Source: Deltaproteobacteria bacterium (GTDB lineage Bacteria; Desulfobacterota; Binatia; UBA9968). Taken from it: 64,000 nucleotides of DNA. Position numbers and translations under genes: made by a program. The stretch is from contig SHYW01000005.1 in NCBI GenBank assembly GCA_009692615.1, positions 1-64,000 of the forward strand, given 5' to 3'. Below, piece by piece: positions 3,793-54,823 of the stretch (positions are counted from its first letter, which is position 1; each line of letters starts with the position of its first letter). The notes beneath the pieces were generated by a model that was not told where the DNA came from, did not search any database, and saw nothing but the letters and a program-made list of their open reading frames with translations.

Positions 3793-5325
3793 TTAGCGGA
3801 TCTTCATCTCCGCGGCCAAGATTTTTTCATCCGGCCGCGGTTTCCAAATTACATTGCGCACCACGCCGTAGTTCTCCGCCAGCGTGTAAAGCGGCACGAA
3901 GGGCACTTCGTCCATTAAGATACGTCCCGCTTGTTGGAGCAACGCAATGCGCTTTTTCGGATCGCCGGTTTTTTGTTCTTCGTCGATCAACTTGTCGAAC
4001 TCGGCGTTCTTGTACTGAATGCGCGGGCTCACACCGGAGCGAAAATACTGATCGTAAACCGTATCGGCATCGATAGCCGGCCGGCCGACGTAATAGAAGG
4101 GCAGCTTGCCGCCATTGACCCCTTCCTTGCCCCAGAAAATGACAAACTCTTGCGAGATCAATTCAGCTTTAACGCCCGCCTTGGCCAATTGATCGGCGAT
4201 CACTTGGCAAACTTCGCGCGCTTTCGGATAGCGGTCCGGCGAGAAATAGAGTTTCACTTCCAAGCCGTCGGTGAAGCCGGCCTTAACCAACAGCTCTTTG
4301 GCCTTCTTGGGATCGTAGGGATAGCGTTTGATCTTGGGATCGAAGCCGATGACGTTGGCACTCATCGGCCCGTTCATCACATAGCCGTTGCCTTCGTAGA
4401 TATGTTTAATGATCTGCGTCGGATCGACGGCGTAGTTGATCGCCTGGCGAACTAATTTGTTATCGAAGGGCTTGTGAGTATTGTTCATGGCGAGAAAATG
4501 CATGCGCAGACCTTCGACTTTTTCGGCGCGGACCTTGGCATGTTTGTCGAAGCGCGACAGCTCTTCGATCGGCACGTTGTTGATCAGATCGCCCTGGCCG
4601 GCCAACAAACCCGACACCCGGCCGGAATCTTCTTTCACTGTCTTGATGACAATTTCTTTAATGTCTTTTTTGCCGTTCCAATAGTCGTCGTTGCGGGTCA
4701 AAACCAAGTTGGCGCCGCGCTGCCAGCTGACATACTTATAGGGCCCGGTGCCGAGCGGATGTTGGTCCACTTGATCGCCGTACTTCTCGGCCGCCGCTTT
4801 GCTGATCATGTAGCGGTTGTAAAGCCGGTCGAGAAACACTGCGTTGGGCACTTCCGTGGTAAAAACCACGGTGTAATCGTCTGAAGCTTGGATCTCGGTA
4901 ACATCGCGAAAATTTTCCGCCTGCAAACTTTGCTTGTCGTTCTTGATCCGGTTAACCGAGTGAATTACATCCTTCGCGGTAAACGGGCTGCCGTCGTGGA
5001 AACGGACGTTCTTGCGCAGTTTGAATTCCCACTTCTTACCGTCGAACTTCCACGACTCGGCGAGCACGCCGAGATATTCTTTCTTAGCGTAATTGATTTC
5101 AATCAACGGCTCGATCATATGCTGCCAAATGCCGTAGTGCGGACTGGCGCTGATCGCGTAGGGATGCAGCGTGTCGAGTCCGACTGCGGCGAGCACCGTC
5201 AGCCGCTCGCGCGACGCCGCGTAGCTTGTGCGGACAATGCCATTGCCGAGCAACGTGCCCAGGCCGGCGAGTGCTACTTGTTTGAGAAAATCTCTGCGCT
5301 CGATGCCCTTAGTCTTTGAACTCAT
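3793..5325 (-). CDS. ABC transporter substrate-binding protein, family 5 (copy 1 of tandem)
   Basis: A 510-residue periplasmic binding protein of the DppA/OppA type (SBP_bac_5). The N-terminus holds a twin-arginine signal (ERRDFLKQ, Arg 10-11) followed by a hydrophobic stretch, so it is probably exported folded by Tat. Family features include the LAESWKFDG stretch and KLRKNVRFHDGSPFTAKDV, the typical opening of the ligand cleft. The ATG at 5325 has GGAGG 5 nt upstream and is preferred over one eight codons earlier. It is last in the operon and close to the next gene in length and sequence, so the two are tandem duplicates. Ligand is unknown: peptides, glycosides or other amphiphilic small molecules are possible. 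Confidence 0.93.
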   Translation of the reverse strand: MSSKTKGIERRDFLKQVALAGLGTLLGNGIVRTSYAASRERLTVLAAVGLDTLHPYAISASPHYGIWQHMIEPLIEINYAKKEYLGVLAESWKFDGKKWEFKLRKNVRFHDGSPFTAKDVIHSVNRIKNDKQSLQAENFRDVTEIQASDDYTVVFTTEVPNAVFLDRLYNRYMISKAAAEKYGDQVDQHPLGTGPYKYVSWQRGANLVLTRNDDYWNGKKDIKEIVIKTVKEDSGRVSGLLAGQGDLINNVPIEELSRFDKHAKVRAEKVEGLRMHFLAMNNTHKPFDNKLVRQAINYAVDPTQIIKHIYEGNGYVMNGPMSANVIGFDPKIKRYPYDPKKAKELLVKAGFTDGLEVKLYFSPDRYPKAREVCQVIADQLAKAGVKAELISQEFVIFWGKEGVNGGKLPFYYVGRPAIDADTVYDQYFRSGVSPRIQYKNAEFDKLIDEEQKTGDPKKRIALLQQAGRILMDEVPFVPLYTLAENYGVVRNVIWKPRPDEKILAAEMKIR

Positions 5326-5367
5326 TCGATCCTCCAAATTGACAACCATGCATGGCTCTCGCCGCCA

Positions 5368-6900
5368 TCAGCGAATTTTCATATCGAAGGCGAGAATTTT
5401 TTCTTCCGGGTGGGCTTTCCAGATCACGTTGCGCGCGACACCGTAGATTTCCGCCAAGGTGTACAAGGGGACTAACGCCGCCTCCTCCATGAGGATGCGG
5501 CCAATTTGTTGCAATAACGCGGCGCGTTTCTTCTGATCGCCGGTCTTTTGCTCCTCGTCAATCAGCCGGTCCACCTCGGCGTTTTGAAAACTGACTCGCT
5601 TGGTTCTGCCGGAGCGGTAATACTGATCGTAGACCGTGTCCGCGTCGATCGCCGGCCGGCCCACATAGTAAAAGGGAATTTTGCCGCCGTTGACCCCGTC
5701 CGAACCCCAGAAGATCGCGAACTCTTGCGAGACCAGCTCGGTTTTTACCCCGGCTTTGGCGAGTTGGTCGGCAATCACCTGGCATACCTCGCGCGCTTTT
5801 GGATAGCGATCGGGAGAAAAATAGAGCTTCACCTCCAAGCCGTTGGCAAAGCCGGCTTGAGTCAACAGCTCTTTGGCCTTCTTCGGATCGTACGCATAGC
5901 GCTTGGTCTTGGGATCGTAACCGATCACGTTGGCGCCGAGCGGCCCGTTCATCACATAACCATTGCCTTCATAGATATGCTTGATGACCACCGTCGGGTC
6001 GACGGCATGGTTGAACGCCTGGCGCACCAGCTTGTTGTCGAACGGCTTGTGCATGACGTTCATCGCTAAAAAATACATTCTCAGCCCTTCGACTTTTTCC
6101 GCGCGCACCCGCGGATGTTTATCCAAGCGGGCAATCTCCTCCACCGGGACATTGTTGACGACGTCGCCTTGCCCAGCGAGCAATCCGGCGAGCCGCGCCG
6201 CATCCTCGCCGACTTTTTTCAAGACGATTTCTTTGACGGCGGCCTTCGCTCCCCAGTAATCGTCGTTTCGCGTCATGACCAGATTGCCATCGCGCTGCCA
6301 GCTGACGAACTTGTAAGGTCCGGTGCCGATGGCGTGTTGATCGGCGTCCTCGCCATACTTCTCCGCCGCGCTCTTGCTCACCATAAACCGGTTTTGCAAT
6401 CGATCGAGAAAAACCGCGTTCGGCACAGTGGTTGTGAAGATCACGGTGTAATCGTTCACAGCTTGTACTTCCGTCAGGTCGTCGAAGTTCGATTTCTGCA
6501 AACTGCGCTTGTCATTTTTCGTTCGATTGACTGAATGGACGACATCGTGAGCGGTGAACGGCGCGCCGTTGTGAAAACGAATCCCTTTCCTGAGCTGAAA
6601 TACCCAAGTGTTTCCTTGGAACTTCCACGACTCGGCGAGCACGCCGTAATAATCTTTGCGGGCGTAGTTGATCTCCACCAGCGGCTCGATCATGTGTTGC
6701 CAGATGCCATACTGCGGCCCGGAACTATGAGCGTAAGGGTGAAGGGAGTCCAAACCGATGCTGCTGAGAATCATCAGCCGATCGCGCGATGCGGCGTAAC
6801 TCACTTTCGCCAGCGAACCGCCCAACGCCGCAGTCAAACCCAGCAACGCGCCCTGCTTCAAGAAATCGCGCCGAGCAATGGTTTTGTTGTTTGTCCGCAT
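5368..6900 (-). CDS. ABC transporter substrate-binding protein, family 5 (copy 2 of tandem)
   Basis: A second 510-residue DppA/OppA-type periplasmic binding protein, collinear with its downstream neighbour without obvious indels. It has the same Tat-type leader (ARRDFLKQ) and the same LAESWKFQG and FHNGAPFTAHDV signatures. Most differences between the copies are conservative, with long identical blocks in the C-terminal lobe (for example YFSPDRYPKAREV). Recent duplication with modest divergence suggests a shift in ligand range rather than a new role (inference). It is co-directional with the genes on both sides, within about 50 nt, so co-transcription is likely. Confidence 0.93.
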   Translation of the reverse strand: MRTNNKTIARRDFLKQGALLGLTAALGGSLAKVSYAASRDRLMILSSIGLDSLHPYAHSSGPQYGIWQHMIEPLVEINYARKDYYGVLAESWKFQGNTWVFQLRKGIRFHNGAPFTAHDVVHSVNRTKNDKRSLQKSNFDDLTEVQAVNDYTVIFTTTVPNAVFLDRLQNRFMVSKSAAEKYGEDADQHAIGTGPYKFVSWQRDGNLVMTRNDDYWGAKAAVKEIVLKKVGEDAARLAGLLAGQGDVVNNVPVEEIARLDKHPRVRAEKVEGLRMYFLAMNVMHKPFDNKLVRQAFNHAVDPTVVIKHIYEGNGYVMNGPLGANVIGYDPKTKRYAYDPKKAKELLTQAGFANGLEVKLYFSPDRYPKAREVCQVIADQLAKAGVKTELVSQEFAIFWGSDGVNGGKIPFYYVGRPAIDADTVYDQYYRSGRTKRVSFQNAEVDRLIDEEQKTGDQKKRAALLQQIGRILMEEAALVPLYTLAEIYGVARNVIWKAHPEEKILAFDMKIR

Positions 6901-6950
6901 GGAAGCTCCATTGACGCTGCTGCTAATTGACGCAACGCCGTCAGCCGTAG

Positions 6951-8489
6951 TTATTTTATACTCATGTCCCAGGCTTTGACTTTTTCATCGGCGCGCACTT
7001 TCCACGCCAGATTTTTCGCCGCGCCGTAGATATCGGCGAGATTGAACAGCGGAATGAACGGCGCCTCGTCCATGATGATCTTGCCGGCTTGCTGCAAAAG
7101 CTGCACGCGCTTCTTGTTATCCGGCGTTTTCTGCTGCTCCTCGATGATCTTGTCTAACTCAGGATTGCTATAACCGGTGCGCTTAGTCGTGCCGGTGCGA
7201 AAATACTGATCGTAAAGCGTATCGGCATCGGCCAAACCGCCTCGGCCAATGTAATAAAATGGCAGCTTGCCGCCGTTGACGCCTTGCTTGTCCCAGAACA
7301 AAGCCCACTCCTGGGAAATCAGTTCGACGCGAAAACCGCCCTTGACCATCTGCGCCGCCACCACCTGACAAACCTCGCGGTCTTTAGGATAACGGCCGGC
7401 GGAATAGTAGAGCTGAATATCGCAGCCATTGGCGAAGCCGGCTTGCGCCAACAGCTCTTTCGCTTTTTGCGGATTGTACGGATAGCGTTTCAACTTGGGA
7501 TCGGCGCCGAGCACGTTGGCGCCCACCGGACCGTTGCACGGATAACCGATGCCGTCGAAAATATTGCGGATGATCGACGGCGCATCGACGCTGTAGTTGG
7601 CCGCCTGGCGCACCAGCTTGTTGTCCCAAGGCTTGAAGGCAACGTTGATGGCGAGAAAAAACATCCGCAAGCCTTCCACCTGATCGATACGGACGCGCGG
7701 ATGTTTGCGCAGGCGCGCCACTTCATGGTCGGGTACGTTGTTGACAAAATCCGCCTGACCCGATTCCAAAGCCGCCAGCCGCGCGGTATCTTCCGTAACC
7801 TTTTTGAAAACGACATCTTTGATACTCGCCTTGCCGCCCCAATAGTCGTCGTTGCGGGTGAAGACGAGATTGCCGCCGCGCTGATAGCTGACGAATTTAT
7901 ACGGGCCGGTGCCGACCAGATTTTCGTACAGCTTATCGCCGTATTTTTCCCCGGCGACTTTGCTCAACATGAAACGGTTGTCGAGCCGATCGAGAAACAC
8001 CGCGTTGGGCTGTTTGGTGACGAAGATCACCGTCTGATCGTCGGGTGTCTGAATTTCCGTCACGTCTTTGAAGTTGGGCGCTTGCAGGCTGCCGCCTTTT
8101 TCGTCGCGGATTTTTTCGATGGAAAAGACCACGTCCTTGGAAGTGAACGGCGCGCCGTTATGAAACTTGATGCCCTTGCGCAATTTGAAGATCCATTTGT
8201 TGCCTTGAAATTGCCACGACTCGGCGAGCACCGGTAGGTAATCTTTACGCCCACCATCGTACTCGACCAGCGGTTCGATGACATGCTGCCAGTTGCCATA
8301 GATCGGGCTCGAGCTGTGATCGAAGGGATGGATCGAATCGGCGACACTGCTGTGATAAATCGTCACCCGATCGCGCGACGCAGCCTGCGCATCGAGCAAA
8401 TAATGCGGCCAGGCCGCGGCGCCGGCAGCCAAAGCCGCGCCCTGTTTTAGAAATGCGCGTCGGCTAATCGTTGCGTTCTTTCTTACCAT
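6951..8489 (-). CDS. ABC transporter substrate-binding protein, family 5 (copy 3 of tandem)
   Basis: A third family-5 periplasmic binding protein, 512 residues, with a canonical twin-arginine signal (SRRAFLKQ) and an Ala-rich hydrophobic segment ending near DAQAAS. It keeps the family cleft motifs (LAESWQFQG, FHNGAPFTSKDV) but is more distant from the two copies downstream than they are from each other, so it likely marks an older duplication. It lies directly after the DppC-type permease gene and before the other two binding proteins. It may be the original partner of the DppBC permeases (inference from gene order). Confidence 0.93.
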   Translation of the reverse strand: MVRKNATISRRAFLKQGAALAAGAAAWPHYLLDAQAASRDRVTIYHSSVADSIHPFDHSSSPIYGNWQHVIEPLVEYDGGRKDYLPVLAESWQFQGNKWIFKLRKGIKFHNGAPFTSKDVVFSIEKIRDEKGGSLQAPNFKDVTEIQTPDDQTVIFVTKQPNAVFLDRLDNRFMLSKVAGEKYGDKLYENLVGTGPYKFVSYQRGGNLVFTRNDDYWGGKASIKDVVFKKVTEDTARLAALESGQADFVNNVPDHEVARLRKHPRVRIDQVEGLRMFFLAINVAFKPWDNKLVRQAANYSVDAPSIIRNIFDGIGYPCNGPVGANVLGADPKLKRYPYNPQKAKELLAQAGFANGCDIQLYYSAGRYPKDREVCQVVAAQMVKGGFRVELISQEWALFWDKQGVNGGKLPFYYIGRGGLADADTLYDQYFRTGTTKRTGYSNPELDKIIEEQQKTPDNKKRVQLLQQAGKIIMDEAPFIPLFNLADIYGAAKNLAWKVRADEKVKAWDMSIK

Positions 8490-14629: not shown

Positions 14630-15700
14630 ATGAAAACTCTTAACATCATCTTTGCCGTGGCGGTTTTTATCTGCGCCACTTGGTCGCCGACCCACACCGC
14701 CGGCGCGGCGGAAAGCGCCGGGCAAATTCTTGCGCGGGTGAATAAGCTGCCCGCCGCCGAACGGCAGAAAGTCTTGATCGAGAAAGCCAAGGCCGAAGGC
14801 GAAGTGGCTTTTTACAGTTCGCTGCAAGCCCAGCAGATCGATCCGTTCATCCAACTTTTTCGCAAACGCTATCCGTTCATCAAAGTGAATCCCTACCGGG
14901 TCTCGGGCAATCGCCAGGTAATCAAGATTCAAACCGAGATGAACGGCGGCAACCATTTATTCGATGTCACCAACGGTTCCGCCGAGCAGGCTTCGGCGAT
15001 CAAGAAGATCGGCGCCATCGATCCCTATTTTTCACCCCAGCGAGAATTCTACAATCCACCCAACCGCGACAAGGACGGTTACTTCGCTTCGCTCTACGTG
15101 ATTCCCATCGTGCTCGGCTACAACACCAACATGGTCAAGCGCCAGGACGCGCCCAAAACCTACGAAGACTTGCTCCAGCCAAGGTGGAAGGGCAACATGT
15201 TTCTAGACGACGAAGCCTATGAGTGGTCCGCGGTGCTGCAAAAACATCTGGGCCGGGACAAGGCGCTGCAATATATGCGCGCGCTGGCCAAGCAAGATTT
15301 GCGCTTCATGCGTGGGCGCACGGCGCAAAGCCAACTGCTCGCCGCCGGCGAACGGCCCATCGCCATCGTGCTCTCGGGCCACACGGTGCTCGACATGAAA
15401 GCGCGCGGCGCGCCGGTGGACCAAGTGATTCTCGATCCCTACTATGCCCAGGCCAACAAACTCATGCTGGCGCGCCATGCGCCCCATCCCCACGCCGCCG
15501 CGCTGTTCTACGATTGGGCGCTCTCGGAAGAGGGCCAAGCGATGATTACCACCTTCGGCCGCGTCATCGCCCGCAAAGGCGTCAAACAAAGATTTTCCGA
15601 GTTAGTGGAAAAAGAATCGTTTCTCGTCGACGTCGATTTTATCGGCCCGATCATGGATCAGATCGGCAAAGAGTTCAGCCAGATTTTCTTGGGACGATAA
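14630..15700 (+). CDS. Extracellular solute-binding protein, family 1 (Fe3+/polyamine type), copy 1
   Basis: A 356-residue periplasmic binding protein of the type II fold related to iron(III)- and thiamine/polyamine-binding proteins. It has a Sec-type signal peptide in the first 25 or so residues (hydrophobic core then AGAAES). Typical stretches are EGEVAFYSSLQAQQ near 50-62, where family members begin the N-lobe, VLGYNTNMVK and LLQPRWKGN. No tyrosine cluster typical of iron binders could be confirmed, so the ligand may be an organic acid or amine. No permease or ATPase follows. The next gene is a close paralogue. Confidence 0.9.
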   Translation: MKTLNIIFAVAVFICATWSPTHTAGAAESAGQILARVNKLPAAERQKVLIEKAKAEGEVAFYSSLQAQQIDPFIQLFRKRYPFIKVNPYRVSGNRQVIKIQTEMNGGNHLFDVTNGSAEQASAIKKIGAIDPYFSPQREFYNPPNRDKDGYFASLYVIPIVLGYNTNMVKRQDAPKTYEDLLQPRWKGNMFLDDEAYEWSAVLQKHLGRDKALQYMRALAKQDLRFMRGRTAQSQLLAAGERPIAIVLSGHTVLDMKARGAPVDQVILDPYYAQANKLMLARHAPHPHAAALFYDWALSEEGQAMITTFGRVIARKGVKQRFSELVEKESFLVDVDFIGPIMDQIGKEFSQIFLGR

Positions 15701-15715
15701 TTACAGATCCGAAAC

Positions 15716-15739
15716 GTAGGGGCGCGATTCATCGCGCCC
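15716..15739. repeat. GTAGGGGCG-type palindromic repeat
   Basis: GGGCGCGAT-TC-ATCGCGCCC forms a perfect hairpin preceded by GTAGG. The same design recurs at 37471, 48538 and 59462. It lies between the two duplicated binding-protein genes. Confidence 0.75.
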
Positions 15740-15783
15740 AGATTTTACGGCAAACAGTATTTATATGTCATGTTGGAGCGTCG

Positions 15784-16860
15784 ATGATGATAAAAAAGTC
15801 GTTCGCAATTTTATCGGCAATGATTGCCGTCGCATTCTCCACTGCGCTGCTCAATGCCGGCGCCGCTCCCGAGAGCGCCGGCCAAATTCTCGCCCGGCTC
15901 GGCAAATTTTCTTCGGAGCAACGCCAAGCGACGCTTTTGGAGAAAGCCAAGGTGGAAGGCGAAGTTAATTTTTACAGCACACTGCAAGCCCAACAAATCG
16001 AACCGTTCTTGCAAGTATTTCGCAAACGCTATCCGTTCATCAAAGCGCTGCCGACGCGGGTTTCCGGCAACCGCCAGTTGGTGCGCATTCAAAGCGAATT
16101 CAACTCTGGCGCCCACATCGTCGATGTCGCCAACGGTTCGCCCGAGTTGGCCGCGGGTCTGAGAAAACTCGGCATCATCGATCCTTATCAATCGCCGCAG
16201 CGGGATTTCTATGTCGCACCGAGCAAGGACAAAGACGGCTACTTCACGTCTTTTTACGTGATGCCGATCGTGCTCGGCTACAATTCGAATTTGGTCAAGC
16301 GCGCCGACGCGCCGAAAAACTACGAAGAGCTGGCCCAAGCGAAATGGAAAGGCAACATCATGCTCGACGACGAAGCCTACGAATGGTTCGCCGTGATGCT
16401 CAAACATTTGGGCCGGGAAAAGGGCTTGCAATACATGCGCGCCATGGCGAAACAGGATTTAAGAATGGTGCGCGGCCGCACGGCGCAAAGCCAACTGCTC
16501 GCCGCCGGCGAACGCGCCATCGCGATCAACGTCTCAGGGCCAACAACTCTAGACCTCAAAGCCCGCGGCGCGCCGGTGGATCAAGTGATCGTCGATCCCT
16601 ATTTTTCCCAGCCGAATAAGATGGTCCTAGCGCGCCACGCGCCTCATCCCCACGCCGCGGCTCTGTTCATCGACTGGGCGTTGTCCGAAGAAGGCCAGTC
16701 GACGGTCACAACATTCGGCCGCGTCTCGGCGCGCAAAGGTGTCAAACAACGCTTTCCCGAATTGATGGACAAAGAAGTTTTTCACGCCGATGTCGAGTTC
16801 ATCAGCCCGATTATGGAGCAGATCACTAAAGAGTTTGGCCAGATATTTCTCGGCCGCTGA
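15784..16860 (+). CDS. Extracellular solute-binding protein, family 1 (Fe3+/polyamine type), copy 2
   Basis: A 358-residue paralogue of the preceding gene with a Sec signal peptide and the same landmarks (VEGEVNFYSTLQAQQ, IVLGYNSNLVKR, LAQAKWKGN, APHPHAAALF). The two proteins align end to end. The start is set at the first of two adjacent ATGs with GGAGCG 3 nt upstream; a much longer upstream open frame overlaps copy 1 in another phase and is not real. The duplication without a linked permease suggests the two proteins feed a transporter encoded elsewhere or act as paired sensors (inference). Confidence 0.9.
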   Translation: MMIKKSFAILSAMIAVAFSTALLNAGAAPESAGQILARLGKFSSEQRQATLLEKAKVEGEVNFYSTLQAQQIEPFLQVFRKRYPFIKALPTRVSGNRQLVRIQSEFNSGAHIVDVANGSPELAAGLRKLGIIDPYQSPQRDFYVAPSKDKDGYFTSFYVMPIVLGYNSNLVKRADAPKNYEELAQAKWKGNIMLDDEAYEWFAVMLKHLGREKGLQYMRAMAKQDLRMVRGRTAQSQLLAAGERAIAINVSGPTTLDLKARGAPVDQVIVDPYFSQPNKMVLARHAPHPHAAALFIDWALSEEGQSTVTTFGRVSARKGVKQRFPELMDKEVFHADVEFISPIMEQITKEFGQIFLGR

Positions 16861-51123: not shown

Positions 51124-51273
51124 TGGTCAAAGTTTATTACTGCTCACGACTTACAGCAAGACTGTCCGAACACACCTTATCCGTCCCTGGGCTCTCGGGA
51201 CGATCTCACTTCGTGATTGCCCCCGTACTTTTCTAAGATTGCCCTCACAAGATATATCTAGTACGATGAGGCG

Positions 51274-51612
51274 GTGGATTGGCGCATCAATTACTTTCGC
51301 GAGGATAGCGAGAGATCGCCCGTCGAGTCTTTTATCGATGCACTTTCCGCAGACGAAAAGGCAGACACCATGGTTGTGATCGACATGCTGCGATCGCACG
51401 GAGTCTCGTTGGGCCGACCCTGAGTTGCACCGTTGGGGAAAGGGCTTTGGGAGCTGCGCGTAAGGACTCGCCGTCAACTCCGTATTCTTTATTTTCTCAG
51501 TACGGAGAGAACTTTTGTTTTGCTCCACGCATTTGTAAAGAAGACCCGGGAAGTCCCCGATTCAGAAACTCGCATCGCCGTGCGTCGCATGAGGCAGTTT
51601 GTTGGGAGGTAA
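51274..51612 (+). pseudogene. RelE/HigB-type toxin with in-frame TGA
   Basis: A 112-codon frame from GTG at 51274: VDWRINYFREDSERSPVESF then IDMLRSHGVSLGRP, TGA at 51421-51423, then VAPLGKGLWELRVRTRRQLR and ILYFLSTERTFVLLHAFVKK. This is the phage-Gp49/HigB family of mRNA interferases and the LWELR, RILYF and LLHAFVKKT blocks are intact. TGA replaces a residue between LGRP and VAPLG, where relatives have His or Leu, not Cys, so it is a nonsense change or an error. A TAG just upstream of the GTG sets the left limit. The antitoxin gene starts 5 nt after the end. Confidence 0.75.
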
Positions 51613-51617
51613 TCAAC

Positions 51618-51908
51618 ATGAACGATTTTCAAAAGCAGTTGAACCGGTTGAGCACTAGTCGAACCTTCGCGGCCGCATTCGATAAGAAACGTGGGGACGC
51701 CGAGGTGGCTTTCCAAATTCGGCGTTTGCGAGAGAGCAAGGGTTGGAGTCAAAAAGATTTAGCGAAAAAGGTCGGCTGTAGCCAGCAGGCAATCTCCGCG
51801 GTCGAGCAGTCGGGCTATAAGAGTCATTCGCTGCCGCTGTTACGCCGCATCGCGCAAGTCCTCGACGCCCAAGTCGTGGTCGCGCTGGTGCCGAGGAAAG
51901 CGGCTTGA
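51618..51908 (+). CDS. HigA-type antitoxin, helix-turn-helix
   Basis: A 96-residue XRE-family DNA-binding protein: EVAFQIRRLRESKGWSQKDL, then AKKVGCSQQAISAVEQSGYK, the recognition helix being CSQQAISAVEQ. GGAGG is 8 nt before the ATG. The N-terminal arm (TFAAAFDKKRGDAE) is the toxin-binding part in HigA-like proteins. It follows the disrupted toxin, as in the higBA order, and the antitoxin itself is intact. Confidence 0.85.
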   Translation: MNDFQKQLNRLSTSRTFAAAFDKKRGDAEVAFQIRRLRESKGWSQKDLAKKVGCSQQAISAVEQSGYKSHSLPLLRRIAQVLDAQVVVALVPRKAA

Positions 51909-52166
51909 ACAATTGGCCGGAGCACCATAAGTCTGTGCTAAGGCTAGTCCGGCGCCATGCTTAAGCGAATTGCTGCAGTCCTGAACCAGTTGCTAGGGTC
52001 GCGTCTTGCTTTTTGACATTTAGTATCCGACCTAGAGCGTTCCCGGAATCACGATCTCAAAGTCGTTCCGGGAGCCGTAAAATCACGGCCGCTAAAGGTT
52101 AACACGGTCGCAGCGTTGCCCTGATCGGCGCATACGCCTCAACTTACTTTATTCTTTACTCTCTAT

Positions 52167-52291
52167 CGCCGACTTCTTAAATTCCGTCCGCATCTCCGAC
52201 TGCAATCGGCCCAACCGATACTTCTGCCAGTCCATAAACTTTCCCGACTCAGCCAGCGCCGGATGGACGGATTAGACTGTGCGCCACATCT
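52167..52291 (-). pseudogene. Decayed copy of the thyX 3' end
   Basis: A 125-nt match without gaps to 53171-53295, the end of the thyX gene, with about ten substitutions. It encodes MDWQKYRLGRLQSEMRTEFK and KKSAIESKE at its end but carries TAA in place of the Gln codon (IQSVH to V*SVH). It is a remnant, in the same orientation as thyX, and lies on the other side of the VapBC module. The remaining gap from 51909 to 52413 shows no gene. Confidence 0.85.
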
Positions 52292-52355
52292 TCTTCTTGG
52301 CAACGGATTAAATCCGAGGGACGGTGCGATCGTCGACAATCCGGAACGTTAATAG

Positions 52356-52383
52356 TTGACTACGAAACCAAACCGACGATAAT
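52356..52383 (+). promoter_or_regulatory. Predicted sigma-70 promoter for the VapBC module
   Basis: TTGACT and GATAAT with a 16-bp spacer lie 30 nt before the antitoxin start. Prediction by pattern only. Confidence 0.4.
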
Positions 52384-52413
52384 AGATGCTAGTTCGAATA
52401 AAGGGCAAAAACA

Positions 52414-52704
52414 ATGAAAACCGCCACCGTGTTAAAACTCAAAGCTTCGCTGAATGATTACCTACGGTCGGTCAAGGCGGGCGAAGAGTTCACGATCACC
52501 GAGCGCGGGCGGCCCATCGCCAAACTCAGTCCCACCAAAAAACTTGACGCCTCAGCGGATCGTATGACCGAAATGGAGAAACACGGTCTCATCAAGCTCG
52601 GTTCTGGCAAGTTGCCGAAAGGCTTTTGGAAACTACCTCGGCCCAAAGATTCTAAGGGGTTGGTGGCTCAGGCTGTGATGCAGGAACGAGAACAAAGCTG
52701 GTGA
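52414..52704 (+). CDS. VapB/Phd-type antitoxin
   Basis: A 96-residue antitoxin of the Phd/YefM (prevent-host-death) type: the DNA-binding N-terminus is LKASLNDYLRSVKAGEEFT and TERGRPIAKLSP, and a disordered C-terminal arm would wrap the toxin. AAAGGG precedes the ATG. Its stop codon overlaps the toxin's GTG start (GTGA), so translation is coupled. Confidence 0.85.
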   Translation: MKTATVLKLKASLNDYLRSVKAGEEFTITERGRPIAKLSPTKKLDASADRMTEMEKHGLIKLGSGKLPKGFWKLPRPKDSKGLVAQAVMQEREQSW

Positions 52705-53132
52705 AGTTCTGGGACACATCAGCAATCGTCCCTCTCTGCGTTGCTGAGCCCGCTTCGGCAACCGTTAAATCCATCCTAAGTAAAGATTCAGCGATCGTAG
52801 TTTGGTGGGGAACCAAAATCGAATGCGTCTCGGCCCTCATGCGCCAACGCCGGGGGGGCTTGTCCGCGCAAAGCGAGCGACAGGCACACCACCTGTTAGA
52901 CTTGCTTGCGAGTACCTGGAGTGAAATTCAGCCGAACGATTTACTACGGGCAACAGCGGACCGTCTTCTGGCGGTGCATTCGCTGCGAGCCGCTGACGCT
53001 TTACAGCTCGCGGCCGCGTTGTAGTGGTGTCAAAAGCGCGCTACGGACAAAGAATTGGTAACGTTCGATATCCGCATGCGTGAGGCTGGACGAAACGAGG
53101 GATTCACCATCCTTCTCGTCAAAACCCGCTGA
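52701..53132 (+). pseudogene. VapC-type PIN-domain toxin with in-frame TAG
   Basis: A PIN ribonuclease: FWDTSAIVPLCVAEPAS holds the first catalytic Asp, IECVSALMR the Glu, and AADALQLAAAL the next Asp. At codon 108 (53022-53024) TAG interrupts the frame, which continues WCQKRATDKELVTFDIRM and ends FTILLVKTR at 53132. Relatives have a hydrophobic residue before WC. The truncated form would lack the last acidic residue (TFD), so it should be inactive. TAG could also be a sequence error. Confidence 0.8.
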
Positions 53133-53161
53133 TCGAGAAATCTAAGTACGTCAGTTGAAGT

Positions 53162-54823
53162 TCATTCAAACGCCGACTTCTTAAACTCCGTCCGCATCTC
53201 CGACTGCAAGCGGCCCAAGCGATACTTCTGCCAGTCCATAAACTTTCCCGATTCGGCCAACGCCGGATGAACGGATTGGATTTTGCGCCACATCTCTTGG
53301 CAGATGAAGCGGTAGTCGGGATGGCCCTGGGGCATGGTGCGTAGCTCGCACATGTGCACGGCTTCGCGCAGGTTCATCTTCATGTACCAGCGGATTTTGT
53401 AGGCGAACGGGACGACGTACTGTGCTTCGCACGGCAGATCGCAATAAATCTGTTCGTACAACTCCGCCGTGCGTTTCATGCAATGATCGAACTCGCTTTT
53501 GAATCCGCCCTCTTCGATCTCCGGCGGCGTGTCGTAGCCATGCACCGTGGTAAAATCCTGGCGCTCTTGGGTGAGAATGCGATGGCGGTGCAGATCGCGG
53601 TAGAGACCCAAATTGCCGAGAATGTCGAAGGTGTAATAGACGTTTTCGAAAGCGCGAGAGAGCTTGTCGCGCCGGTGGCGTCGCTTGGAAAAATATTCTT
53701 GGAGAATTGTTTGCCGCTCAGACTGGCTCAGCGTTGCGGCGATCTTACGCAATTGTTCCAACGGCTGGCGCGCCTGACCGTAGAGAATCGCCGCGATGAC
53801 TTTTTCTTCCGCTTGAAGATCGTAATCGACCAGATTCACTGGTTCATGTGTAACAATTGGAGTTGATGTCGTCGCACGAGCCGCCAGCGCTTTTGCCGCC
53901 GCAGTTGTCGCGACGAGAAAGTCATTGCGCTGGGCGCGCTTGACGAAGGAAGGAATCAGCTGATTCAATTCACCATGAATCGCCGCGCCGAGCGCTTGCG
54001 CTTCGGACAACTCGTGCGAGTACAACTTGCTGACCAAATATTCAAACGCCTGGCCGATGCCGAACATGCCGACGTTGGTCAGCGTCGCCGCCGGCAGATA
54101 ACTGCGCAGCACGTCGCAAGCTTGCGCCCGCACGGTCGCGCGATACGCTGTCTCGGCCCAGCGCTTCAAGCGTTCATCTTTCGCCGCGTCGGCGTAACTC
54201 AAACCTTTGCCGCTTACCGGATCGCGCACTTCGAGCTGCTCGATGGGCAGCGATTTGGCGACGTGATCGAGCATCGGCTCCATCTGCTTGGAGTAGGTCT
54301 CGAACAGCAGATTCATCACTTCGAGATAGGCGTCGCGGTGGCGCGATGCCATGATCTTGGGCTCGCGGTAAAACAGATAATTGCCGGCACCATCTTTTTG
54401 GTCGAAGCGCACGTAGCGCGTCGATTTTTCCAGCGGCGCGATGCCGATGCGCGCGTCTTCCAATAACTTCGCCGCGACGTTGGAAATATTCTCGCAGGCG
54501 ATATGCGCGCCGCCCAACTGGGCGACGGAATCGTCGCCGTAGCCGACCAGCACGCGCTCGAAGAACGCCCGGGCTTTCTTCAGCGCCGCGCTGTCGTCGG
54601 CGGCGGGAATCTGGCCGCCAAGCAAGTCTTTCAAAGCCAGCTCGGGATCGCCGAGAAACTCGTCGAGAAAAGTCCGTCGCAAGCTCTTCGCCGAACGGCT
54701 GTAACGCGAAAACAGCGCGCCGGCGACTTCCTGGGGTAGTTTCAAACCGAAGGTGTCGCGTTCGAGATTGGTGAAAAAAAGCGCCAGCCGTTTTTGCTCG
54801 TCGGTGGAGAACTCCGCGGTCAT
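53162..54823 (-). CDS. thyX: FAD-dependent thymidylate synthase, long two-domain type
   Basis: A 553-residue protein, twice the usual ThyX length, with two ThyX-like halves. The N-terminal half has GDDSVAQLGGAHIACENISN and LEKSTRYVRFDQ near 130-145, resembling the FAD/dUMP region but without RHR. The C-terminal half has RDLHRHRILTQERQDF near 405-420, the RHR motif of ThyX. Similar long forms occur in Chlamydia and some other bacteria. It makes dTMP from dUMP using NADPH and methylene-tetrahydrofolate. The 3' end is duplicated at 52167. Confidence 0.88.
   Translation of the reverse strand: MTAEFSTDEQKRLALFFTNLERDTFGLKLPQEVAGALFSRYSRSAKSLRRTFLDEFLGDPELALKDLLGGQIPAADDSAALKKARAFFERVLVGYGDDSVAQLGGAHIACENISNVAAKLLEDARIGIAPLEKSTRYVRFDQKDGAGNYLFYREPKIMASRHRDAYLEVMNLLFETYSKQMEPMLDHVAKSLPIEQLEVRDPVSGKGLSYADAAKDERLKRWAETAYRATVRAQACDVLRSYLPAATLTNVGMFGIGQAFEYLVSKLYSHELSEAQALGAAIHGELNQLIPSFVKRAQRNDFLVATTAAAKALAARATTSTPIVTHEPVNLVDYDLQAEEKVIAAILYGQARQPLEQLRKIAATLSQSERQTILQEYFSKRRHRRDKLSRAFENVYYTFDILGNLGLYRDLHRHRILTQERQDFTTVHGYDTPPEIEEGGFKSEFDHCMKRTAELYEQIYCDLPCEAQYVVPFAYKIRWYMKMNLREAVHMCELRTMPQGHPDYRFICQEMWRKIQSVHPALAESGKFMDWQKYRLGRLQSEMRTEFKKSAFE

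What the first reader, a model, noticed from the sequence alone, without database searches (positions are those of the whole stretch)
52167..53295. VapBC module framed by a duplicated thyX 3' end
The 125-nt end of thyX (53171-53295) is repeated without gaps at 52167-52291 with about ten substitutions and a nonsense codon. The vapBC pair lies between the copies. This is the layout left when an element inserts at the 3' end of a gene and restores it, or when a homologous fragment brought the cassette in. No integrase is present.
Basis: partly seen in the sequence, partly recalled or inferred. Interest (0 to 1): 0.65.

Follow-up and report, generated by a model that had tools for sequence, protein, structure and literature searches.

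The report
Toxin-antitoxin pair behind doubled thyX end
A dead toxin-antitoxin pair sits between the working end of a DNA-precursor gene (thyX) and a broken second copy of that end; related bacteria carry similar thyX-end scraps beside inserted genes, so the end of thyX looks like a recurrent, integrase-free docking point for new DNA in this group.

Summary
The end of thyX (minus strand, 53162-54823) recurs at 52161-52302, with 10 differences in the 125 ungapped bases plus a TAA, and vapBC lies between the copies.

New evidence: (1) A same-genus genome (G004) has intact vapBC with the same thyX-end fragment in the same orientation, at the apt locus away from thyX; the shared block is [second PIN toxin pair]-[thyX end]-[vapBC]. 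(2) The copy is a mosaic: its outer 48 nt are decayed (54%), its last 114 nt are 90% like thyX with only synonymous changes over 35 codons. It was therefore exchanged with a working thyX and did not simply rot in place. (3) Extra thyX-end fragments occur in 9 of about 20 informative genomes of two families; a control gene, thiG, shows none in 31 genomes. (4) No tyrosine integrase lies on the thyX or fragment contigs listed, and fragment start points vary.

Best reading: repeated homology-anchored (RecA-type) insertion at the thyX 3' end, each insertion restoring thyX and leaving the old end behind, followed by rearrangement and decay. Classical integrase-mediated insertion is not supported.

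The parts
53162..54823 (-). thyX, 553 aa, intact; copy B is its last ~162 nt (53165-53326), ending SAFE-TGA
   Evidence: PF02511, E = 2.5e-38; orthologs in 22 of 25 family genomes
52161..52302 (-). Copy A: second thyX 3' end, with remnants to about 52335 (codon ~500). Part 52167-52276 is clean; the outer part carries TAA at 52272-52274 and indels
52303..52413 (.). Spacer between copy A and vapB, homologous to the same spacer in G004
   Evidence: alignment
52414..52704 (+). vapB1, Phd/YefM-type antitoxin, intact, 96 aa
   Evidence: 79% identical to the G004 protein
52701..53132 (+). vapC1, PIN toxin, nonsense TAG at 53022-53024, so only 107 of 143 codons are read
   Evidence: intact ortholog in G004
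51974..52138 (-). Remnant of the end of a second PIN toxin gene (vapC2), frameshifted and internally deleted, directly downstream of copy A
   Evidence: 81% identical to intact vapC2 next to the thyX fragment in G004
51618..51908 (+). higA-like (Xre) antitoxin, intact
   Evidence: PF01381/PF13560; homolog in G002 next to the DEAD-box gene
51250..51612 (+). higB-like toxin remnant with TAG at 51421-51423
   Evidence: frame shown; open at that codon in G002

Best explanation
The 3' end of thyX in this bacterial family is a recurrent landing place for short incoming segments, often toxin-antitoxin modules. An incoming piece carrying a thyX end pairs with the resident thyX end by RecA-type homologous recombination; its other side joins by illegitimate, microhomology-type recombination. 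thyX stays whole with a new end, and the old end is pushed downstream as a fragment. In this genus that produced, in thyX orientation, thyX - vapC1/vapB1 - old thyX end - second PIN toxin pair. Later the copies exchanged sequence again in the window's lineage, the block was separated from thyX in G004, and in the window all three toxins died while VapB1 and HigA stayed intact. SHOWN: the repeat, its mosaic and synonymous pattern, the colinear block in G004, recurrence of thyX-end fragments, the dead toxins, and no integrase listed on these contigs. INFERRED: one-sided homology as the entry route, the order of events, and gene conversion as the homogenising step.
For: The same fragment and vapBC are colinear over 993 alignment columns (77%) in G004 at apt, with both flanks different. 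The block continues into vapC2. A-B identity is 54% in the outer 48 nt against 90% in the last 114 (Fisher p = 7e-7), while the G004 fragment is evenly decayed (p = 0.58). Seven of seven changes over 35 codons are synonymous, p about 2e-5 to 7e-5 for random hits. Extra thyX-end fragments occur in G000, G001, G004, G009, G013 (three), G015, G016, G019, G025 and in G049 of another family in the class. Controls: thiG gives one match per genome in 31 genomes; zwf gives only paralogs or contig pieces; 9/20 against 0/21, Fisher p = 5e-4. Contigs end within 200 nt of the thyX end in 4 of 18 genomes against 0.30 expected, as expected of a repeat that breaks assembly. Fragment start points vary, and none on record exceeds about 165 nt.
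Against: Only thiG and zwf served as controls, so preference for thyX over other genes is not proven. Generic one-sided recombination does not explain why fragments never exceed the last ~10% of thyX; that hints at a specific recombinase or a carried arm. Two fragments (G004, G049) lie on contigs other than the one with thyX, so a later move must be added. No empty-site relative was found: the three same-genus thyX 3' flanks available all differ. These are metagenome bins, so some junctions may be binning or assembly faults.
Confidence: 0.55

Rival explanations
1. Site-specific insertion: an element whose integrase attacks the thyX 3' end carries a copy of that end and restores the gene; the integrase was later lost and copy A is the displaced attR side.
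For: thyX specificity against the thiG control; all but one fragment keep the gene end; several start near model positions 74-82 (G015, G019, G013, G049).
Against: No PF00589 hit listed on the thyX or fragment contigs examined. Start points spread from codon ~500 to ~537. One fragment (G013, 4436-4496) is internal. Serine recombinases were not searched and the integrase listing was cut at E ~3e-9.
Confidence: 0.2
2. Portable unit: vapBC with its thyX end is itself the moving cassette, the carried end serving as a homology arm (circle plus single crossover at thyX).
For: Same fragment-vapB arrangement at three different loci in G000, G004 and G009.
Against: The G009 fragment is closest to the thyX end of another genus. 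Thirteen other vapBC ortholog loci have no fragment. The shared block is not bounded at the fragment but runs on into vapC2.
Confidence: 0.15
3. In-place tandem duplication of thyX end plus vapBC in this lineage, followed by deletion and decay of one copy.
For: Gives the same order with no foreign DNA; tandem paralogs are common in these genomes.
Against: All seven changes over 35 codons are synonymous. B is the more derived copy at most of these sites when polarised with G004, whereas a dead copy should change faster. The fragment already existed before the split from G004.
Confidence: 0.08
4. The similarity is chance, or an assembly artefact of this genome.
For: The genome is a draft in 186 contigs.
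Against: E = 9e-46; the fragment recurs beside the orthologous vapBC in an independent genome.
Confidence: 0.02

Closest known systems
Homology-facilitated illegitimate recombination, as proposed for Vibrio cholerae T6SS immunity arrays (PMC5361080)
   Same: A conserved stretch anchors incoming DNA, the other side joins illegitimately, the resident 3' part is shifted downstream, and repeated events build arrays
   Different: There the displaced parts are effector ends and immunity genes selected for protection; here the anchor is a metabolic gene end and the leftover is a dead fragment
Small variable segments of bacterial genomes (PMC2884548)
   Same: Short gene-sized differences without mobile-element genes, attributed largely to illegitimate recombination, with homology-assisted events proposed for some
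   Different: No gene-end hotspot with leftover fragments is reported in the passages read
Genomic islands integrating at gene 3' ends, e.g. SGI1 at trmE (PMC8409611)
   Same: The insertion lies at the 3' end of a conserved gene, which stays functional
   Different: Those use an integrase; none was listed on these contigs, and start points differ between fragments
Type II toxin-antitoxin modules VapBC, HigBA, HicAB
   Same: Gene order, sizes and Pfam families match
   Different: In the window the toxins are broken, so these are remnants

Membership tests
Type II TA module VapBC | Phd/AbrB-type antitoxin overlapping a PIN-domain toxin | tested here: met
   PF02604 (27.5 bits, slightly below cut-off) and PF01850; 4-nt overlap
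Type II TA module VapBC | Full-length toxin with all conserved acidic residues | tested here: not met
   TAG at 53022 removes the last 36 residues, including the D of VTFD
Type II TA module VapBC | Toxicity neutralised by the antitoxin | not testable with these tools
   needs expression experiments
Integrase-driven gene-3'-end island | Integrase encoded within or next to the element | tested here: not met
   no PF00589 hit listed on thyX/fragment contigs; serine recombinases not searched
Integrase-driven gene-3'-end island | Constant attachment core, same crossover point in each case | tested here: not met
   fragment starts range from codon ~500 to ~537
Integrase-driven gene-3'-end island | Target gene restored | tested here: met
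   thyX intact, 553 aa
Homology-facilitated illegitimate recombination product | Homology on one side, illegitimate (microhomology) junction on the other | tested here: inconclusive
   one-sided homology clear; a plausible microhomology junction read by eye in G016, none provable in the window
Homology-facilitated illegitimate recombination product | Displaced old end retained downstream of the inserted genes | tested here: met
   window, G013, G015, G019, G025
ThyX (flavin-dependent thymidylate synthase) | Thy1 domain | tested here: met
   PF02511, 132 bits

The most novel reading that the evidence does not exclude
This lineage has an integrase-free class of mobile cassettes, mainly toxin-antitoxin modules, that carry the last ~160 nt of thyX as a built-in homology arm and so home onto the thyX 3' end, regenerating the gene at each insertion and stacking up in tandem.
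Probability: 0.15. Interest if true: 0.7.

Novelty: new variant of a known kind. Interest (0 to 1): 0.48.

Why it matters
Toxin-antitoxin modules move between chromosomes, often with no visible mobility gene, and how they do it is poorly known. A site where successive insertions leave datable scraps of a conserved gene gives a record of integrase-free gene gain, and a ready test of whether homology at a gene end alone can make an insertion hotspot. Four searches of the held paper library found no report of thyX as such a site; subscription literature was not covered.

Tried and rejected
Simple decay in place: rejected because the changes over 35 codons are all synonymous and the decay is confined to the outer part. 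Copy A as the left boundary of a mobile unit: first adopted, then dropped when the colinearity was found to continue into vapC2. A trace of the vapC end after G004's thyX as an excision scar: B and G004 flanks are alike (p = 0.002), but the match to the G004 vapC end is not significant (p = 0.14). Thirteen other vapBC ortholog loci and four loci of vapC2 relatives searched for fragments: none. Foreign base composition: vapBC has GC3 0.60-0.62 against 0.71-0.74 in neighbours, suggestive only, since small TA genes often differ.

Full report
Observation. The window holds thyX on the minus strand (53162-54823, 553 aa, PF02511). Its last part recurs 1004 nt away at 52162-52291, 91% identical without gaps, with TAA at 52272-52274. 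Between them lie vapB (52414-52704) and vapC (52701-53132). Read through, VapC is a full PIN protein, but codon 108 is TAG, so the toxin is truncated before its last acidic residue; the antitoxin is intact.

Age and nature of the copy. Over 35 codons (SVHP...KKSA) the two copies differ at seven sites, all synonymous; random hits would give this with p of about 2e-5 to 7e-5. Polarised with the G004 thyX, copy A keeps the ancestral base at most of these sites and B is derived. A copy lying dead beside thyX for the whole time should show the opposite. The outer 48 nt of A are 54% identical to thyX and the inner 114 nt 90% (p = 7e-7), whereas the matching fragment in G004 is evenly decayed. So A is an old fragment whose inner part was exchanged with a working thyX end. 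The longest identical run is 32 nt, enough in principle for RecA-type exchange, which could also delete vapBC cleanly; that last step is inference.

The relative. G004 (same genus, thyX 92% identical) has an intact vapBC ortholog with a thyX-end fragment immediately upstream of vapB in the same orientation (codons ~501-553), but next to apt on another contig. Window 52161-53141 and G004:C2 align over 993 columns at 77%. Left of the fragment G004 has a MazE-like antitoxin and a PIN toxin; the window keeps only a frameshifted, deleted piece of that toxin at 51974-52138. The shared block is therefore [TA2]-[thyX end]-[TA1], and the simplest reading is that it is older than the split of the two species. 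Upstream of thyX the order is shared between the two genomes; downstream it differs.

Recurrence. A sequence-only model of the last 162 nt of thyX found extra fragments in nine genomes of two families and one in a further family of the class. Neighbours on the 5' side include vapBC (window, G004, G009), hicAB with a broken hicA (G025), a HigA-like gene and MazEF-like genes (G013), an HNH gene (G049), a substrate-binding protein gene (G019) and a zinc-ribbon cyclase gene (G015, and a truncated one in G016). In G015 a PIN toxin pair also follows thyX directly. thiG, searched over the same 35 genomes, gave a single match in each of 31; zwf gave paralogs and contig pieces only. Four of 18 assemblies break within 200 nt of the thyX end, 0.30 expected.

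Mechanism. No tyrosine integrase was listed on the thyX or fragment contigs, and fragment starts vary between about codon 500 and 537. This fits one-sided homology with an illegitimate second join, as proposed for Vibrio effector-immunity arrays (PMC5361080) and for small variable segments (PMC2884548). It does not by itself explain why only the last tenth of thyX is ever left behind; a lost recombinase or a carried thyX arm stays possible.

Fate. All three toxins near thyX in the window are dead: VapC1 by TAG, HigB by TAG at 51421, VapC2 by deletion and frameshift. VapB1 and HigA are intact. This is the usual end of unselected TA modules, where the toxin must be lost first (established reasoning, not tested here).

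Verdict. The finding is real, with a mechanism of a known kind but at an unusual, repeatedly used site in an uncultured lineage; the nearest named records are MAGs labelled Deltaproteobacteria or Syntrophobacter sp..

Noticed in passing
window 51130-51908: A second decayed TA module: HigA-like antitoxin intact, HigB-like frame broken by TAG at 51421; in G002 it lies on the other side of the DEAD-box gene.
   Followed up: partly
window 53162-54823: ThyX here is about 553 aa, with two stretches matching the Thy1 model, roughly double the usual length.
   Followed up: no
L041 5324-5467 and 9492-9635 (G006): A 144-nt intergenic-type repeat, 90% identical, about 4.2 kb apart near thyX; nature unknown.
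   Followed up: no
L032 1-300 (G016): Start of a zinc-ribbon cyclase gene runs in frame into a thyX 3' end; possible microhomology GCGGAGTGCG; similar substrate-binding genes follow both thyX and the fragment.
   Followed up: partly
L045 1219-6556 (G013): Three separate thyX pieces downstream of one thyX, one of them internal (codons ~508-527) and lacking the gene end, interleaved with TA-type genes.
   Followed up: partly
L126 1188-1794 (G025): HicAB between thyX and a displaced thyX end, with HicA frameshifted and a further antitoxin-PIN pair beyond the fragment: close parallel to the window.
   Followed up: partly
L136 9911-10110 (G049): thyX-end fragment whose similarity to the native locus continues about 120 nt past the stop codon, on a different contig from thyX, next to an HNH gene.
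   Followed up: partly
window 3793-8489 and 14630-16860: Tandem paralogous substrate-binding protein genes.
   Followed up: no
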